From Lachnospiraceae bacterium (GTDB lineage Bacteria > Bacillota > Clostridia > Lachnospirales > Lachnospiraceae), in contig SVDL01000004.1 in NCBI GenBank assembly GCA_015057835.1, positions 1 to 64,000 of the forward strand: a DNA stretch of 64,000 nt, in the 5' to 3' direction. Positions 6,734 to 14,045 of this stretch are shown in pieces (position 1 is the first letter of the stretch; every line of letters begins with the position of its first letter). The notes beneath the pieces are model-generated. The model saw only the letters and a program-made list of their open reading frames with translations, did not search any database and was not told where the DNA came from. Made by a program: the position numbers and the translations under genes.

Positions 6734-6786
6734 AATACAGTCTGTTGTTTTTAATTCCATAAAAACCATCCTGGAAAGGGACAAAT

Positions 6787-8598
6787 ATGACGGAGACATT
6801 GAAAGAACGGAAAGACATGGATCCGCGGTTTATGTGGGATCTCACAAAACTATACGCGGATGATGAGGCCTGGGAGAAGGCTTTTGCGGAGATCGACCCT
6901 CTGATCGACGCTGTAGCGGAAATGGCGGGGACGCTGAGCGACGCCGGACATATTCTGGAGTATTTCCGCAGATCCACCGCTCTCGAGCGGACGCTGAGCA
7001 ACCTTTTTGAGTACGCATCGCTCCGGCGCAGCGGCGACACCAGGGAGACGGCGGCGCAGAGCATGTACGCGAGGGTTTACGGGAAATACGTAAATGCTGT
7101 CACGGCGTCCTCCTTTGCGGAGCCCGAGTTTCTCGCCCTCCCGGAGGAAGAGATCCGGAAGATCACAGAGGATCCGTCCCTTACGGAATTCTCTTTTGCC
7201 CTGAAACTGATCGCGGAGCGGAAGCCGCACACCCTCTCGGCGGGAGAGGAAATGCTGCTGGCCAGTTTCGGCGAAGTGTTCGCCGCGCCGGGGCAGATCG
7301 CGGAGAACCTGCAGGACGCGGATATGACCTTCTCCCCGGTAAAAGACGCGGAAGGAAAGGAACATGAGCTCACGGACTCCAATTTCATCCTTCTTCAGAA
7401 TTCGGAGGACCGCGTTCTCCGGGAGAACGCTTTCCGCAGCTACTACGCCGGATATAAAGGGCACATCAATACGTTCGGAGCTGCTTACAGCGGCGCGGTC
7501 AAGGCGGCGGCAGTCGAAGCGGCGGCGCGGCACTACGGATCGTCCCGGGAGATGGCGATGGCGGCGGAACACGTTCCGATGGAAGTCTATGACAATCTGA
7601 TCGCCGCCGTGCGGAAATTCATGCCCGCCATGTACCGCTATGTCGCGCTCCGGAAGAAGATCCTCGGCGTCGATGAACTGCACTATTATGATGTCTACAC
7701 GCCGCTTGTACAGGGCAGCACGAAGACGTACACCTACGAAGAGGCGCAGGAGATGATCCTCTCCGCCGTGGAACCTCTCGGAGAGGAGTACGGCAGAGTC
7801 GTCCGGCAGGCATTCGCCGAGCGGTGGATCGACGTCTATCCGAACCGGGGCAAGACCGGCGGCGCGTTTTCTGCAGGCACATATGATTCCGTGCCTTATA
7901 TCCTGACCAATTATACAGGGACGCTCAACAGTGTCTCCGCCCTCGCCCACGAGATGGGGCATTCCATGCACACGTGGCATGCCAACCGTCAGCAGCCGCC
8001 GCAGTATGCGGGGTATACGCTGTTCGTCGCGGAAGTCGCCTCGACGGTAAACGAAAATCTTCTGGTGGAGAAGCTTCTCGAGGGGACGCAGGATCCGAGG
8101 GAAAGACTGCTTTACCTCAATGAGTATATGGAAGGCTTCAAGGGAACCGTCTACCGCCAGACCATGTTCGCGGAATTTGAGAAGGAAGCCCACGCCATGG
8201 CGGAGAGAGGCGAAGCCCTGACGCCGGAAGCGCTCTGCGGGGTCTACCGGCAGCTGGTCTCCGATTATTTCGGACCGGATCTCGTCCCGGATGAGGAAGT
8301 GCAGTACGAGTGGGCGAGAATACCGCATTTCTACAGCCCGTTCTACGTTTTCAAGTATGCCACGAGCTACTGTGCTTCCGCGGCGGTCTCCGAGGCGGTC
8401 CGCACGGAGGGGGACGCGGCGGCGAAGCCCTATCTTGAATTCCTCTCCATGGGCGGCAGCGCGCTTCCGCTCGATGAACTGAAGCACGCCGGCGTGGATC
8501 TTTCAACACCGGCACCGATCGAGCGGGCTCTTTCCAAGTTTGAAAGAATCGTGGAAGAGGCCGAAAAAACGTACGAAATGATTGCGGGAGCGGAATAA
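6787..8598 (+). CDS. pepF: Oligoendopeptidase F (M3 family)
   Basis: SALAHEMGHSMHTWHANRQQP zinc-peptidase motif and full-length M3/PepF-like sequence. Confidence 0.93.
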   Translation: MTETLKERKDMDPRFMWDLTKLYADDEAWEKAFAEIDPLIDAVAEMAGTLSDAGHILEYFRRSTALERTLSNLFEYASLRRSGDTRETAAQSMYARVYGKYVNAVTASSFAEPEFLALPEEEIRKITEDPSLTEFSFALKLIAERKPHTLSAGEEMLLASFGEVFAAPGQIAENLQDADMTFSPVKDAEGKEHELTDSNFILLQNSEDRVLRENAFRSYYAGYKGHINTFGAAYSGAVKAAAVEAAARHYGSSREMAMAAEHVPMEVYDNLIAAVRKFMPAMYRYVALRKKILGVDELHYYDVYTPLVQGSTKTYTYEEAQEMILSAVEPLGEEYGRVVRQAFAERWIDVYPNRGKTGGAFSAGTYDSVPYILTNYTGTLNSVSALAHEMGHSMHTWHANRQQPPQYAGYTLFVAEVASTVNENLLVEKLLEGTQDPRERLLYLNEYMEGFKGTVYRQTMFAEFEKEAHAMAERGEALTPEALCGVYRQLVSDYFGPDLVPDEEVQYEWARIPHFYSPFYVFKYATSYCASAAVSEAVRTEGDAAAKPYLEFLSMGGSALPLDELKHAGVDLSTPAPIERALSKFERIVEEAEKTYEMIAGAE

Positions 8599-8677
8599 TC
8601 TGCTATAATTATTCCGTATGCAGGCTTTTTCAGTCTGCTGTCAGGCGACCAGAAAATGATCAGGAGGAGATACTTAT

Positions 8678-10291
8678 ATGAAGCTGTGCAAGGATGCTCT
8701 GAAAAACCGGAAAGAATGGGAAAATGCGGGATTTACTCTCCCAAAATACGATATTGACGAGATGAGAAAGCAGACGGCGGAGACCCCGGAATGGGTGCAC
8801 CTCGGAGCGGGCAACATTTTCCGCGCGTTTATCTGCAAAAAAGCGCAGATGCTGCTCGACAGCGGCGACGCGAAGACCGGTATCATTGCGGTGGAAGGCT
8901 TTGACTACGATATCGTCACAAAGATCTATAAACCGTTTGACGAACTGTGCGCGGCGGTCACTCTGAAGGTGGACGGAAGCACAGATCAGGACATTATTGC
9001 CTCTGTCGCGAATTCCCTGATCCTTGATCCGGAGACGGAAGCGGACTGGGCGGAACTGCAGCGGATCTTTACGGCACCGACACTGAAGATGGTCAGTTTT
9101 ACCATCACTGAAAAAGGATACAGTCTTCTGGACCGCTCGGGAGCGATCGCGGCTCCGGTCGCGCAGGACATGAAAGAAGGTGCCGGAAAACCGGTAAGCT
9201 ATCTCGGAAAAGTGACGGCTCTTCTTTACGCGAGATATAAAGCCGGGGAGCTTCCGGTCGCGATGGTGAGCATGGACAACTGCTCCCACAACGGCGAGCT
9301 TCTTGAAAAAGCCATAACCGCGTTTGCGAAAGCCTGGGTCGAAAACGGCAAGGCGGAAGAAGGCTTCCTCGACTATGTGACGAAATCCGGAAAAGTATCT
9401 TTCCCGTGGAGCATGATCGACAAGATCACACCGCGCCCCGACGCGAGTGTTCAGAAATCTCTCGAGGACAGAGGACTCGAGGGTATCGCCCCCATTATTA
9501 CGTCCAGAAATACGTACATCGCGCCTTACGTCAATGCGGAAGAGGCGGAGTACCTTGTCATTGAAGACAAGTTCCCGAACGGACGTCCTGCGCTCGATAA
9601 AGTCGGCATCTATTTCACGGACCGCGAGACCGTAAACAAGACGGAAAAGATGAAAGTAGGCACCTGCCTCAATCCGATCCACACTGCTCTTGCGATTTAC
9701 GGATGCCTGCTCGGACACGAGCATATCTGTGACGAGACGCAGGATGCACAGCTGATGAAACTTGCGAAAGAACTGGCGATGACCGAGGGAATGCCCGCTG
9801 TCGTCGATCCGGGGATCCTCTCTCCGGTGGCCTTCGCGACGGAAGTGCTCGAAAAACGTCTTCCGAACCCGTTCATGCCGGATACGCCGCAGCGCATCGT
9901 GACCGACACGAGCCAGAAACTGCCGGTCCGCTTCGGCGAGACGATCAAGACCTACATCGCGAGAGACGATCTCAACGTGGATGATCTGAATCTGATTCCG
10001 CTTGTTTTCGCCGGATGGTGCCGTTACCTCATGGGTATCAATGATGAGGGCGGCGCGATGGAACTGAGTTCCGATCCGCTTCTTGCGGAACTTACGCCGG
10101 TATTTGAAAACGTGAAGCTCGGCGAAGCGTGCGATGTTCATGCACTGCTCGCCCCGGTGTTCTCAAACGCGAGAATTTTCGGCGTCGATCTCTATGAAGT
10201 CGGCATCGCAAAGAAAGCAGAAGAATATTTCGAACAGCTGATCGCCGGACCGGGCGCTGTGAGACAGACGCTTGTGAAGGTTCTCGGCTGA
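8678..10291 (+). CDS. Mannitol dehydrogenase family protein (hexuronate/polyol oxidoreductase)
   Basis: WVHLGAGNIFRAF N-terminal motif, SMDNCSHNGELL, KVGTCLNPIHTALAIYGCLLGH. Confidence 0.85.
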   Translation: MKLCKDALKNRKEWENAGFTLPKYDIDEMRKQTAETPEWVHLGAGNIFRAFICKKAQMLLDSGDAKTGIIAVEGFDYDIVTKIYKPFDELCAAVTLKVDGSTDQDIIASVANSLILDPETEADWAELQRIFTAPTLKMVSFTITEKGYSLLDRSGAIAAPVAQDMKEGAGKPVSYLGKVTALLYARYKAGELPVAMVSMDNCSHNGELLEKAITAFAKAWVENGKAEEGFLDYVTKSGKVSFPWSMIDKITPRPDASVQKSLEDRGLEGIAPIITSRNTYIAPYVNAEEAEYLVIEDKFPNGRPALDKVGIYFTDRETVNKTEKMKVGTCLNPIHTALAIYGCLLGHEHICDETQDAQLMKLAKELAMTEGMPAVVDPGILSPVAFATEVLEKRLPNPFMPDTPQRIVTDTSQKLPVRFGETIKTYIARDDLNVDDLNLIPLVFAGWCRYLMGINDEGGAMELSSDPLLAELTPVFENVKLGEACDVHALLAPVFSNARIFGVDLYEVGIAKKAEEYFEQLIAGPGAVRQTLVKVLG

Positions 10292-10310
10292 TACCGGAAC
10301 ATATTTAAGG

Positions 10311-10345
10311 CATAAGACGACAGCTTGCGGAGCTGTCGTTTTATG
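10311..10345 (+). terminator. Rho-independent terminator-like hairpin after the mannitol dehydrogenase gene
   Basis: CATAAGACGACAGCT-TGCGG-AGCTGTCGTTTTATG, 15-bp stem with one G-U pair; U-run lies within the right arm. Confidence 0.7.
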
Positions 10346-10375
10346 CAAAATAAAGAACACATTGAAAAGGCATTG

Positions 10376-11530
10376 ATGATGGCAAAAAAAGTAAAAAAGA
10401 AAAGCAAATGGAAAGCGCCGCTCATCGTTATGGTGATCATTCTCGTGCTCTTCGGGGGTGCCTGGGCGGTCTTTGCGAGATACTACAATCTGAGCAATTT
10501 TGTGAAAGATGAGGAAGTCAGCAAACAGGCTGAGGAGAACAGCGAGGAAGTCGAGGCGGAGGACAACGGTCTTACCTCCGAGGAAGAGGAAGTGATGCGG
10601 ATCGAGGCGGAGAGCGCTCTCGAGGATACCGCGCTTCCCGAGAACGAGAATGTTTACAATATCCTTCTCATCGGCGTTGACCGGAGAGACCGCAGCTGGT
10701 CCGGCAACTCGGATTCCATGATTCTTCTTTCCATCAACCATAATACAAAATCGATGCACATGATCTCCTTTATGCGCGATCTCTACGCGGATATTCCGGG
10801 CAAGGGCGTCCACAAGCTGAACGCGGCCTGCGCGTACGGCGGAGGACCGCTTCTTGTGCAGACGATCGAGCAGAACTATAAAGTCAATATCGACAATTAC
10901 GCGAGCGTCGATTTCCCGGCGATGATCAAGATCATCGACTACGCCGGAGGCGTGGAGCTCACCCTCTCCGAGAGAGAAGTGCAGGTCGCCAACGACTATA
11001 TCCGCGTCATGTGCGAGGAACAGCACGAAGATTTCTCGAAGCATAAACTGCCGGGCCCGGGCACCTATAACTGTGACGGATTCCAGGCCGTCGGCCACGC
11101 GAGAAACCGCTTCATCGGCAATTCCGACTATCAGCGCACCGAGAGACAGCGCACGGTCCTCACGAAGATCATGGAGCGCGTCAAGGCGATGAGCGTCACG
11201 GAAATGAACAGGTTCGTCGAAAACGTCCTGCCGCTCGTGACTCACAATGTGGAGAGCTCGACAATGCTGGATCTCATTTCCAAAGCACCCTCGATCCTGA
11301 AGGAGTATTCCCTCGGAACGAGCCGCGTGCCCTATGACGGGATGTTCTCCTCGAGAGGGGAGATCCTGTATCCGGATATGAAGGAAACGATCCAGCGGCT
11401 CCAGGATACGATCAATGCGGACGGCCTCGCGGAGTGGGAGAAGAAATCGGGGGATGCCGAGGAAGGCTCCAACGACGATATCCAGCCGGATATCGGAGAT
11501 CTGAAAGAAGACGACGGAAAGCCCGACTGA
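10376..11530 (+). CDS. LytR-CpsA-Psr (LCP) family cell-wall ligase/attenuator
   Basis: Basic N-terminus plus TM; NILLIGVDRRDRSWSGNSDSMILLSINHNTKSMHMISFMRDLYADIPG, NYASVDFPAMIKIIDYAGGVEL, VGHARNRFIGNSDYQRTERQR. Confidence 0.92.
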   Translation: MMAKKVKKKSKWKAPLIVMVIILVLFGGAWAVFARYYNLSNFVKDEEVSKQAEENSEEVEAEDNGLTSEEEEVMRIEAESALEDTALPENENVYNILLIGVDRRDRSWSGNSDSMILLSINHNTKSMHMISFMRDLYADIPGKGVHKLNAACAYGGGPLLVQTIEQNYKVNIDNYASVDFPAMIKIIDYAGGVELTLSEREVQVANDYIRVMCEEQHEDFSKHKLPGPGTYNCDGFQAVGHARNRFIGNSDYQRTERQRTVLTKIMERVKAMSVTEMNRFVENVLPLVTHNVESSTMLDLISKAPSILKEYSLGTSRVPYDGMFSSRGEILYPDMKETIQRLQDTINADGLAEWEKKSGDAEEGSNDDIQPDIGDLKEDDGKPD

Positions 11531-11543
11531 CGGAAGGAAGCGC

Positions 11544-14045
11544 ATGATCTGGTTTCAGAGATTTTATCTTGATAAGGAAAAAGATATGATCGTCGATCTC
11601 TATAAAGAGACCGACGGTCTTTCTTACATTTTAAGGACCCCCAATCACAATACGGGGAACCTCATCACGAACCTCGCGAAGCTGTGCGGACTGCCTCTGT
11701 CCTATGACGGGAACGGTCTCAAGATCATCTGCGGCGAGGTTCCCTGCTATGTCGACGGATACAACCGGGAGATCTGGATCTTCCGCCTCGGGGGAACGAA
11801 AGTCGCCAACATTTATCCCGACGGCACGGTGGAGATGAAGGCGCAGATCCCCTCCATTTCCAAGACGCTCATGAGCCAGACGAAGGATTACCGGCTCCCG
11901 GAGGAGAAGACCATCGTCAAGACCTACATCCGCTCAGAGTGCAAGTTCCGGACGGACCTCCACACGCATATGAACGCCAATCTGCCGCCGGATGTCCTGA
12001 TCGCGCTCGGGATCGCCCATGAGATCCGCTATCCTCTTTACTACATCAAAAAGCTGAAACTGCGCTGCACGGAGGAACAGAAAGAGAAGCTTGCCGCGCG
12101 GAGGCTCGCGGCGGAGGAAAAATACCGGGACTACGCCCTGACGGGAAAATACATGACCCGCCGCGTCGATGACAATACTTTCATCAATTTTGCGGACCTC
12201 ATTCTGAAAAATCCGGGGGACGCCGCCTATAATATCGCGAAGATCAGGAATTCCCTGGCAATCATGAAAGACGGGCAGGCGGTCTTTACGAATCTGGAGA
12301 AGGTCTATCTGTACCGCTATGTCTTTACAAAAGGGGTGCCCGCCGATGATCGGATCGGCGTGTGCCCGGGAGAAGAGGACAGAGGAAGGCTGTTGTCCGC
12401 CGCGGACGCTTTCCAGGCGATGTCCGCGGTCCGCGCGATCCCGGATGAGGATATCCGGCGCACGGTGCTGCAGATCCTGAGGGACCGGGAAACGCCGGAG
12501 TATCGGGACAATACCGTTTTCCAGGATAAGCTCCTCTGGATCGCCAGAGGATACGCCTCCCGCGGGATCACTTACGCGGAGATCTCGGACACATCCCTTG
12601 TCAAAAAAGACGCCGCTCCGGATGTTCTCGCCCAGATCCATGCCGTCATGCCCGCAATTTACCGCGAGACGGGCGTCCTTCTGCGGTTCCTCGCCGGGAT
12701 CCGGCGCATTCCGCTCACCATCATCAAACATAAAGCATCCGGAAGCGATTATTTCCGGGAGAATCTGCAGGTCCTGGCCGCCGTCGCACAGGATCCGTAC
12801 GTGGCCGGCAGCGATATTATCGGCGAGGAGATCAACGACATCCGGGATCTTCGGCCGGTGATCAAAGAGATCGTGAGGATCGCGGCGGAAGAGACGGATT
12901 TTACGGTCCGGATCCACGCCGGTGAAAACGACAGTCTTCGGGATAATGTGATCAACAGCGTCCGCTGCGTAAAAGACTCTCTCGCCCCGGGGCAGCCCAT
13001 GCCGCAGCTGCGCATCGGCCACGGGCTCTATACGGCAAATCTCAGTTCCGCCAAGGGCAGGACTCTGATCCGGGAACTGACGGAATCCGGCGCCGTGCTG
13101 GAATTCCAGATCTCATCCAATGTCCGCCTCAATAACTTAAGCGGCATGGAGAAACATCCTCTCCGATCCTACCTCCGGGCGGGCGTCCGCTGCGTGCAGG
13201 GGACGGACGGGGCCGCTCTTTACGGAACGGATTCCATCGATGAACAGCTCTCCCTCGAGAAAATGCTCGGGCTCTCTTTCGATGAGCTTTGCGCCATGCG
13301 GAAATGCGAAGAAGAAGTGCGCGCCGCAGGGGTGCGCGCGTTTGAGCGCAAAAGCATGAAGTTGCGGGAGAGGCTTGTACAGGAAGATATGGAAGGTTCG
13401 CCGGAGACCTATTACCGGAAGCTCATTCTGGAAAAGGCGGGATGGACAGGAATCGGCCTTGTCCGCGACAGAAGGAAAAATGCAGCCGCAGCGCTTGCCG
13501 ACCGGATCGAGGAACTTCCGGACGGCTTGCGGCCGGTGGTCCTGTGCGGAGGAAGCTTTAATAACGACGCCAGAACGACAAAAGTGACGGAAGAGGGCAG
13601 AAAGCTGATACGGAAGATCATTGAAAAATGCGATCCGTCAGAACATTACTTTGTAATCGGACACAGGATCAGCGGCTACGAGCGGTGCCTCATCGAAGAA
13701 TGCGCCGGCCGTTTTCCGATCTACGCGTTTGTTCCGACTCTGCTCTCTGATCAGCGGATCCGCCGGATCCGGGAGAGCGGCGTGAAGGTGCGCGTCTCCA
13801 TCGAACCGGTGGACATGGGGATCTATAAGAGCATCGCCTATGAGATCTTCAAGCGTCGGGAATCCACCCTTATAGCGCTGGACGGAAACAGCGCCGGCGC
13901 CAATCTCATTCAGGAGGCGAAGAACGCGAAATACCGCTGCCGCATTTTTGTGAGCAGAAGTTCCCGCACGCTGAGAGAGAAGGCGGATTCCCTGGAAGGG
14001 TATGTCACCCTGATCGGTGACGGCGGTGAGATCGATGGCATCTGA
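11544..14045 (+). CDS. Adenosine deaminase-like metal hydrolase with C-terminal Rossmann/SLOG-like domain
   Basis: FRTDLHTHMNANL, VRIHAGEND, LRIGHGLYT, EFQISSNVRLNNL, GTDGAALYG correspond in order to ADA-family metal/catalytic motifs; C-terminal VVLCGGSFNND...HYFVIGHRISGYERCLIEE resembles SLOG/LOG folds. Confidence 0.7.
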   Translation: MIWFQRFYLDKEKDMIVDLYKETDGLSYILRTPNHNTGNLITNLAKLCGLPLSYDGNGLKIICGEVPCYVDGYNREIWIFRLGGTKVANIYPDGTVEMKAQIPSISKTLMSQTKDYRLPEEKTIVKTYIRSECKFRTDLHTHMNANLPPDVLIALGIAHEIRYPLYYIKKLKLRCTEEQKEKLAARRLAAEEKYRDYALTGKYMTRRVDDNTFINFADLILKNPGDAAYNIAKIRNSLAIMKDGQAVFTNLEKVYLYRYVFTKGVPADDRIGVCPGEEDRGRLLSAADAFQAMSAVRAIPDEDIRRTVLQILRDRETPEYRDNTVFQDKLLWIARGYASRGITYAEISDTSLVKKDAAPDVLAQIHAVMPAIYRETGVLLRFLAGIRRIPLTIIKHKASGSDYFRENLQVLAAVAQDPYVAGSDIIGEEINDIRDLRPVIKEIVRIAAEETDFTVRIHAGENDSLRDNVINSVRCVKDSLAPGQPMPQLRIGHGLYTANLSSAKGRTLIRELTESGAVLEFQISSNVRLNNLSGMEKHPLRSYLRAGVRCVQGTDGAALYGTDSIDEQLSLEKMLGLSFDELCAMRKCEEEVRAAGVRAFERKSMKLRERLVQEDMEGSPETYYRKLILEKAGWTGIGLVRDRRKNAAAALADRIEELPDGLRPVVLCGGSFNNDARTTKVTEEGRKLIRKIIEKCDPSEHYFVIGHRISGYERCLIEECAGRFPIYAFVPTLLSDQRIRRIRESGVKVRVSIEPVDMGIYKSIAYEIFKRRESTLIALDGNSAGANLIQEAKNAKYRCRIFVSRSSRTLREKADSLEGYVTLIGDGGEIDGI

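What the first reader, a model, noticed from the sequence alone, without database searches (positions are those of the whole stretch)
11544..14045. 833-aa ADA-like deaminase fused to a SLOG-like nucleotide-binding domain
Seen: in order, HTH (DLHTHMN), HAGE, IGHG, E-x3-SN and TD motifs, covering the zinc ligands and catalytic Glu/His of the adenosine deaminase family, but the usual TDDP is TDG, so the substrate may differ. A ~140-residue N-terminal region has no family I recognise. The last ~190 residues (VVLCGGSFNND...YFVIGHRISGYERCLIEE...STLIALDGNSAGANLIQEA) look like a Rossmann/SLOG fold. Established: SLOG domains bind or sense nucleotide-derived ligands, and large ADA-like proteins (RdrB of RADAR) act in anti-phage defence. 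Inference: a ligand-gated nucleotide deaminase for nucleotide-pool, stress or defence control. No rdrA-like AAA partner is adjacent, so it is not a canonical RADAR.
Basis: partly seen in the sequence, partly recalled or inferred. Interest (0 to 1): 0.8.

Follow-up and report, generated by a model that had tools for sequence, protein, structure and literature searches.

The report
Deaminase fused to nucleotide-sensor-like domain
Rumen Clostridia carry a stand-alone 830-residue enzyme that joins an altered adenosine-deaminase barrel to a SLOG-type nucleotide-binding domain, a build that recalls the ligand-switched CRISPR deaminase Cad1, but nothing in its surroundings yet ties it to phage defence.

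Summary
ORF 11544-14045 encodes an 833-aa protein with a genuine ADA-type barrel (Pfam E 4e-15; AlphaFold/Foldseek) and a C-terminal domain whose high-confidence model (pLDDT 92) has SLOG folds as its best matches (ShosA/DprA, TRPM, MoCo carrier, LOG). The beta-rich N-terminal ~134 residues match no family, yet are the most conserved part. At least 80 full-length relatives (56-84% identical) plus 20 further loci, mostly from rumen Clostridia, keep all three parts together under purifying selection. All catalytic residues are invariant, but the two aspartates that hold adenosine in mouse ADA are replaced: Asp19 by Asn (106/109), Asp296 by Gly (109/109). The same two positions are changed in Cad1, which deaminates ATP. 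I therefore favour a SLOG-regulated deaminase of a phosphorylated adenine nucleotide. There is no conserved neighbour, no defence island, no obligatory TIR partner and no phage or plasmid copy, so a defence role is possible but unsupported. Purine salvage is also poorly supported: half of the genus lacks the gene and none has any other ADA. It is neither RADAR nor Cad1: a new domain architecture of a known kind, ligand and substrate unknown.

The parts
11544..14045 (+). whole gene, 833 aa: N-terminal beta domain + ADA-like barrel + SLOG-like domain
11544..11945 (+). N-terminal beta-rich domain (res 1-134), no known family, most conserved part; invariant TPNH..GNLI and K/R-rich segments
   Evidence: no Pfam; invariant columns; strands 2-98; lowest dN/dS
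11946..13382 (+). ADA-like TIM barrel (res 135-613) with a large helical insert between the HTH strand and the next core strands
   Evidence: Pfam PF00962; Foldseek to 2pgf, 6ii7, Cad1 8z3k, AMPD 9nte
11961..11975 (+). HTHMN (res 140-144): two metal ligands; Asn144 replaces mouse ADA Asp19
   Evidence: PMC12669630 for the mouse ADA/Cad1 numbering
12915..12926 (+). HAGE (res 458-461): metal ligand and catalytic Glu
   Evidence: invariant
13017..13025 (+). GHG (res 492-494): catalytic His493
   Evidence: invariant
13203..13211 (+). TDG (res 554-556): metal ligand Asp555; Gly556 replaces mouse ADA Asp296
   Evidence: 109 of 109 relatives
13383..13508 (+). variable linker (res 614-655)
   Evidence: lowest identity
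13509..14045 (+). SLOG-like Rossmannoid domain (res 656-833)
   Evidence: model pLDDT 91.9 of res 650-833; Foldseek ShosA 8zva E 1.7e-4, DprA 3uqz 5.2e-4, TRPM, MoCo carrier, LOG
13548..13562 (+). GGSFN (res 669-673), loop after SLOG strand 1, predicted ligand site
   Evidence: G, S, F invariant in 84 sequences
13881..13919 (+). DGNSAGANLIQEA (res 780-792), loop where LOG enzymes carry PGGxGTxxE; predicted ligand site
   Evidence: G, N, N, Q invariant; LOG motif seen in own-genome LOG

Best explanation
A stand-alone cytoplasmic metal-dependent deaminase whose substrate is a 5'-phosphorylated adenine nucleotide (or a close analogue) rather than adenosine. A nucleotide-type ligand bound in the C-terminal SLOG domain switches or tunes the barrel, as the CARF domain does in Cad1; the N-terminal beta domain, rich in invariant basic residues, probably helps to bind substrate phosphates or to build the oligomer. 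Shown: the fold of the barrel and of the SLOG domain (models), intact catalytic residues, loss of both adenosine-holding aspartates, joint conservation of the three parts. Inferred: deaminase activity, nucleotide substrate, ligand gating, role of the N-terminal domain.
For: H140, H142, H458, E461, H493 and D555 are invariant. Asp19 position is Asn in 106/109 and Asp296 position Gly in 109/109, whereas 19 ordinary ADAs of the same order all keep the Asp19 residue and have Asp or Asn at 296. Cad1 has Gly and Asn at these two positions and deaminates ATP, with hardly any action on adenosine (PMC12669630; PMC11645235). RdrB, which takes ATP/dATP and neither AMP nor adenosine (PMC9994260), also lacks the Asp19 residue (Gly in L188 and L189, sequences). 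SLOG fold by Foldseek, with invariant residues clustered in the loops that bind ligand in this fold; a LOG-type hydrolase motif is absent, which fits sensing better than catalysis. No separate copy of the SLOG domain was found and all domains are under purifying selection.
Against: No ligand, substrate or activity is known. In TaqCad1, restoring the two aspartates did not restore adenosine deamination (PMC12669630), so these positions are not a full specificity code. RdrB keeps Asp at 296, and some ordinary ADAs of the order have Asn there. The SLOG match is by fold only, with no sequence-level match to any SLOG family. No neighbouring gene hints at who makes a ligand.
Confidence: 0.42

Rival explanations
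1. A housekeeping nucleotide deaminase: constitutive handling of AMP, N6-modified AMP or a similar metabolite, with the SLOG domain giving allosteric feedback by a metabolite or only structural support.
For: Found in 8 of 8 listed genomes of one genus and 6 of 7 of another (g26, g34). Neighbours are ordinary metabolic genes. No other A_deaminase in any of 42 genomes of the window's genus, so it could fill that place. AMPD and N6-methyl-AMP deaminases are among the fold matches.
Against: Absent from about half of the window's genus (20 of 42 have it), so it is dispensable. The gene tree breaks the genus (AU p 3e-72), as for an accessory gene. Not linked to purine genes.
Confidence: 0.27
2. An anti-phage effector: infection produces a nucleotide signal, the SLOG domain binds it, and the barrel depletes (d)ATP or another nucleotide.
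For: Design parallels Cad1 (Rossmann sensor + ADA) and ThsA (SLOG sensor + NADase; PMC7272460 and PMC11204291, abstracts). Patchy in the window's genus with strong conflict between gene and genus. Own genome has 7 TIR_2 matches; one relative (L061) has a TIR-Sel1 gene 128 bp downstream.
Against: No defence-island neighbourhood. No association with TIR in the genus (12/20 vs 8/22, p 0.22), and near-complete genomes with the gene lack TIR_2 (G154, G170, G266). Near-universal in two genera. No copy in viral contigs, phages or plasmids.
Confidence: 0.2
3. A two-step enzyme: the barrel deaminates and the SLOG domain, like LOG enzymes, splits the base from the nucleotide.
For: LOG phosphoribohydrolases share the SLOG fold; the two activities would act on the same class of molecules.
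Against: The PGGxGTxxE motif of LOG, present in the genome's own LOG, is replaced by DGNSAGANxIQE, and the ERxxKM segment by YKS.
Confidence: 0.1

Closest known systems
Cad1 / CAAD, the CARF-fused adenosine deaminase of type III CRISPR (PADLOC CARF_ADA)
   Same: ADA barrel joined to a Rossmann-type nucleotide-sensor domain; both adenosine-holding aspartates replaced; intact metal site
   Different: Sensor is SLOG at the C-terminus, not CARF at the N-terminus; extra N-terminal beta domain; no CRISPR genes among the neighbours scanned; PADLOC model matches the barrel only
RdrB of RADAR
   Same: Large ADA-like protein with helical inserts; Asp19 residue lost
   Different: No RdrA partner and no RdrB model match in PADLOC; Gly instead of the Asp that RdrB keeps at the 296 position; carries a SLOG domain
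ThsA of Thoeris (SIR2-SLOG)
   Same: C-terminal SLOG domain behind a nucleotide-acting enzyme
   Different: Enzyme is an ADA barrel, not SIR2; no ThsB-type TIR partner next to it
Canonical adenosine deaminase (PF00962)
   Same: Barrel, metal ligands, catalytic Glu and His
   Different: 833 aa instead of about 330; two extra domains; substrate-holding aspartates replaced
ShosA/DprA, TRPM SLOG, MoCo carrier, LOG
   Same: SLOG fold of the C-terminal domain (Foldseek E 1e-4 to 1e-2)
   Different: 7-16% identity only; characteristic LOG catalytic motif absent

Membership tests
Adenosine deaminase superfamily (PF00962) | HxH, HAGE, GHG and D metal/catalytic residues in a TIM barrel | tested here: met
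Canonical adenosine deaminase (EC 3.5.4.4) | Asp19- and Asp296-equivalents that hold adenosine | tested here: not met
   Asn in 106/109 and Gly in 109/109
Canonical adenosine deaminase (EC 3.5.4.4) | deaminates adenosine | not testable with these tools
   needs an assay
RADAR (RdrB) | match to RdrB models | tested here: not met
   no RdrB match at E up to 1, while RdrB proteins of the same order match at 1e-31 or better
RADAR (RdrB) | adjacent RdrA AAA+ gene | tested here: not met
Cad1 (CARF-ADA) | N-terminal CARF domain fused to ADA | tested here: not met
   PADLOC match covers profile 408-570 of 605, barrel only; N-terminal 134 residues match no family
Cad1 (CARF-ADA) | type III CRISPR locus nearby | tested here: not met
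   no cas10-type gene among the immediate neighbours scanned; not searched genome-wide
SLOG superfamily | Rossmannoid SLOG fold with ligand loops at strand ends | tested here: met
   fold level only
LOG phosphoribohydrolase | PGGxGTxxE catalytic motif | tested here: not met
Thoeris | SLOG effector with TIR partner gene | tested here: not met
   TIR next to the gene in 1 of about 100 loci (motif scan); near-complete carriers without TIR_2

The most novel reading that the evidence does not exclude
A third kind of sensor-gated ADA effector besides Cad1 and RADAR: a single protein in which a SLOG domain senses a nucleotide second messenger of unknown origin and switches on deamination of (d)ATP or of another nucleotide, as an innate stress or anti-phage response in rumen Clostridia.
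Probability: 0.2. Interest if true: 0.8.

Novelty: new variant of a known kind. Interest (0 to 1): 0.52.

Why it matters
Converting ATP to ITP is a recently found way to stop a cell from supporting a phage; so far the switches known are CRISPR signals (Cad1) and RdrA. A SLOG-fused relative, kept as one unit in many rumen bacteria, would extend this design to another class of signal, or reveal an unknown regulated step of purine metabolism. Neither its N-terminal nor its C-terminal domain matches a described sequence family, so it is also a clear target for structure work.

Tried and rejected
RADAR: rejected, no RdrB model match and no RdrA. Cad1: rejected as membership, no CARF domain. Conserved operon partner: looked for in 80 loci plus 20 further loci, none; the LCP gene upstream and RsmJ-like gene downstream in the window are not conserved neighbours. 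TIR partner: a TIR-Sel1 gene follows the gene in L061, but only there, and the genus-wide association is not significant. Duplicate copies in G018: flanks are colinear at about 88-90% identity, so a mixture of two strains in the MAG is likelier than duplication. Sequence-level link of the C-terminal domain to LOG by hhalign: none (only two LOG sequences used, so weak). Weak Toprim and other Pfam hits of the C-terminal domain are below cut-off and scattered. Literature: no paper in the held library describes an ADA-SLOG fusion; the 2015 SLOG survey of Burroughs and colleagues was not read here, so an earlier listing there cannot be excluded.

Full report
The ORF at 11544-14045 on the + strand is real and complete: 833 codons, ATG start, a plausible ribosome-binding site, and about 14 bases after the end of an LCP-family gene. 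The genome holds one copy. Pfam finds an adenosine-deaminase domain at residues 335-586 (E 3.9e-15) and nothing significant in the first 144 or last 190 residues. NCBIfam gives only sub-threshold ADA matches. PADLOC gives only a weak match of the barrel to the CARF-ADA model and none to RdrB.

Relatives. In 42 genomes of the same genus, 20 carry the gene. A scan of species-representative genomes returned 80 kept loci, all covering nearly the whole protein at 56-84% identity, mostly rumen and gut metagenome assemblies labelled Lachnospiraceae, Ruminococcaceae/Oscillospiraceae or unclassified Clostridia. In a sample of the order, 8 of 130 genera match, including 8 of 8 listed genomes of genus g26 and 6 of 7 of g34; a few of the order's matches are ordinary ADAs. 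In a spread of 399 genomes of the phylum only the window's own genome and one g26 genome match. No copy was found in viral contigs, phages or plasmids; plasmid hits are partial, ADA-only matches.

Structure. A full-length AlphaFold model from 64 relatives has pLDDT 84.6 and pTM 0.81; it shows a beta-rich domain (residues 2-98), a TIM barrel, a long helix and a C-terminal alternating alpha/beta domain. Foldseek against the PDB gives ADA, AMP deaminase and Cad1 barrels. The C-terminal part modelled alone has pLDDT 91.9; its best PDB matches are ShosA, TRPM N-terminal SLOG regions, DprA, the MoCo carrier protein and LOG, all SLOG folds, with probabilities near 1 and E from 1.7e-4. The viral library, with nothing below E 0.001, also lists DprA-like and YspA/YpsA-type SLOG proteins near its top. 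Sequence profiles of this domain match nothing convincing, so the assignment rests on fold.

Active site. H140, H142, H458, E461, H493 and D555 are invariant. The residue two after the second HxH histidine, Asp19 in mouse ADA, is Asn in 106 of 109 relatives; the residue after the metal-binding Asp, Asp296 in mouse ADA, is Gly in all 109. Nineteen ordinary ADAs from the same order all keep the first and have Asp or Asn at the second. In TaqCad1 the same positions are Gly and Asn; it barely acts on adenosine but turns ATP into ITP when a cyclic oligoadenylate binds its CARF domain (PMC12669630; for Cad1 in general PMC11645235). RdrB, which deaminates ATP and dATP but not AMP or adenosine (PMC9994260), has Gly at the first position in two copies read here (L188, L189). 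This points to a phosphorylated substrate. It is an inference: putting both aspartates back into TaqCad1 did not restore adenosine activity.

SLOG ligand site. Invariant residues of the C-terminal domain lie in GGSFN, GHxxxYE, YKS and DGNSxxxNxxQE, the loops at strand ends where this fold holds ligands (general knowledge of Rossmannoid folds; SLOG domains as enzymes or sensors of nucleotides: PMC9503650). The LOG hydrolase signature seen in the genome's own LOG protein (PGGAGTLDE) is not there. Sensing therefore seems likelier than base release.

Context. Clustering of flanking genes in 80 loci finds no recurrent neighbour beyond generic transporters and local synteny; the g26, g34 and f8 loci agree. 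Of 118 immediate neighbours scanned, the commonest Pfam families occur four times (ABC transporter, TrmO), and PADLOC matches are scattered, mostly single and generic. TIR genes, the makers of ADP-ribose-type signals for SLOG sensors, do not track the gene: 12 of 20 carriers and 8 of 22 non-carriers have one, p 0.22, and three near-complete carriers lack TIR_2 altogether. Holding the window's genus together on the gene tree is rejected (AU p 3e-72; full tree), which means transfer between lineages or old duplicates with loss. No genome of the genus has any other clear PF00962 protein, so the gene is neither a second ADA beside a normal one nor indispensable.

Selection. dN/dS between close relatives is 0.04-0.13 for the N-terminal part, 0.09-0.19 for the barrel and 0.12-0.24 for the SLOG part where not saturated; synonymous divergence is above 1 in most pairs, so these are rough. 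All three parts look functional, and the unnamed N-terminal domain is the most constrained.

Verdict. The most likely working is a SLOG-regulated deaminase of a phosphorylated adenine nucleotide. A defence role rests on analogy alone; a metabolic role rests on near-universal presence in two genera and on ordinary neighbours. The decisive tests are biochemical.

Noticed in passing
L187:8274-13982: A 1038-aa RdrB-like ADA protein (PADLOC RdrB E 5e-33) lies beside a 364-aa protein that matches only part of RdrA and a 502-aa protein with no family: possibly a RADAR variant with a split or unusual partner.
   Followed up: partly
L188:7429-13242 and L189:2312-7875: Ordinary-looking RADAR pairs (RdrB 889-899 aa next to RdrA-like AAA proteins) in the same order; useful comparison for the active site.
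   Followed up: partly
L191:5616-7169 and L192:5755-7266: ADA-like proteins with N-terminal lipoprotein-type signals and degraded metal motifs (SDKARY, SEMARY), perhaps non-enzymatic.
   Followed up: no
L061:4363-5781: TIR-Sel1 protein (ThsB-like TIR match) 128 bp downstream of the gene in one relative; the region downstream differs between two similar copies in the same MAG.
   Followed up: partly
window 6734-11494: PepF, mannitol-dehydrogenase-like and LCP genes lie here but are missing from the otherwise colinear relative L027, where the deaminase directly follows the ArsR-type regulator.
   Followed up: no
G033:C229:1489-3774 (L018, L022, L026): The gene is spread over three consecutive reading frames: either a decayed copy or assembly errors.
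   Followed up: no
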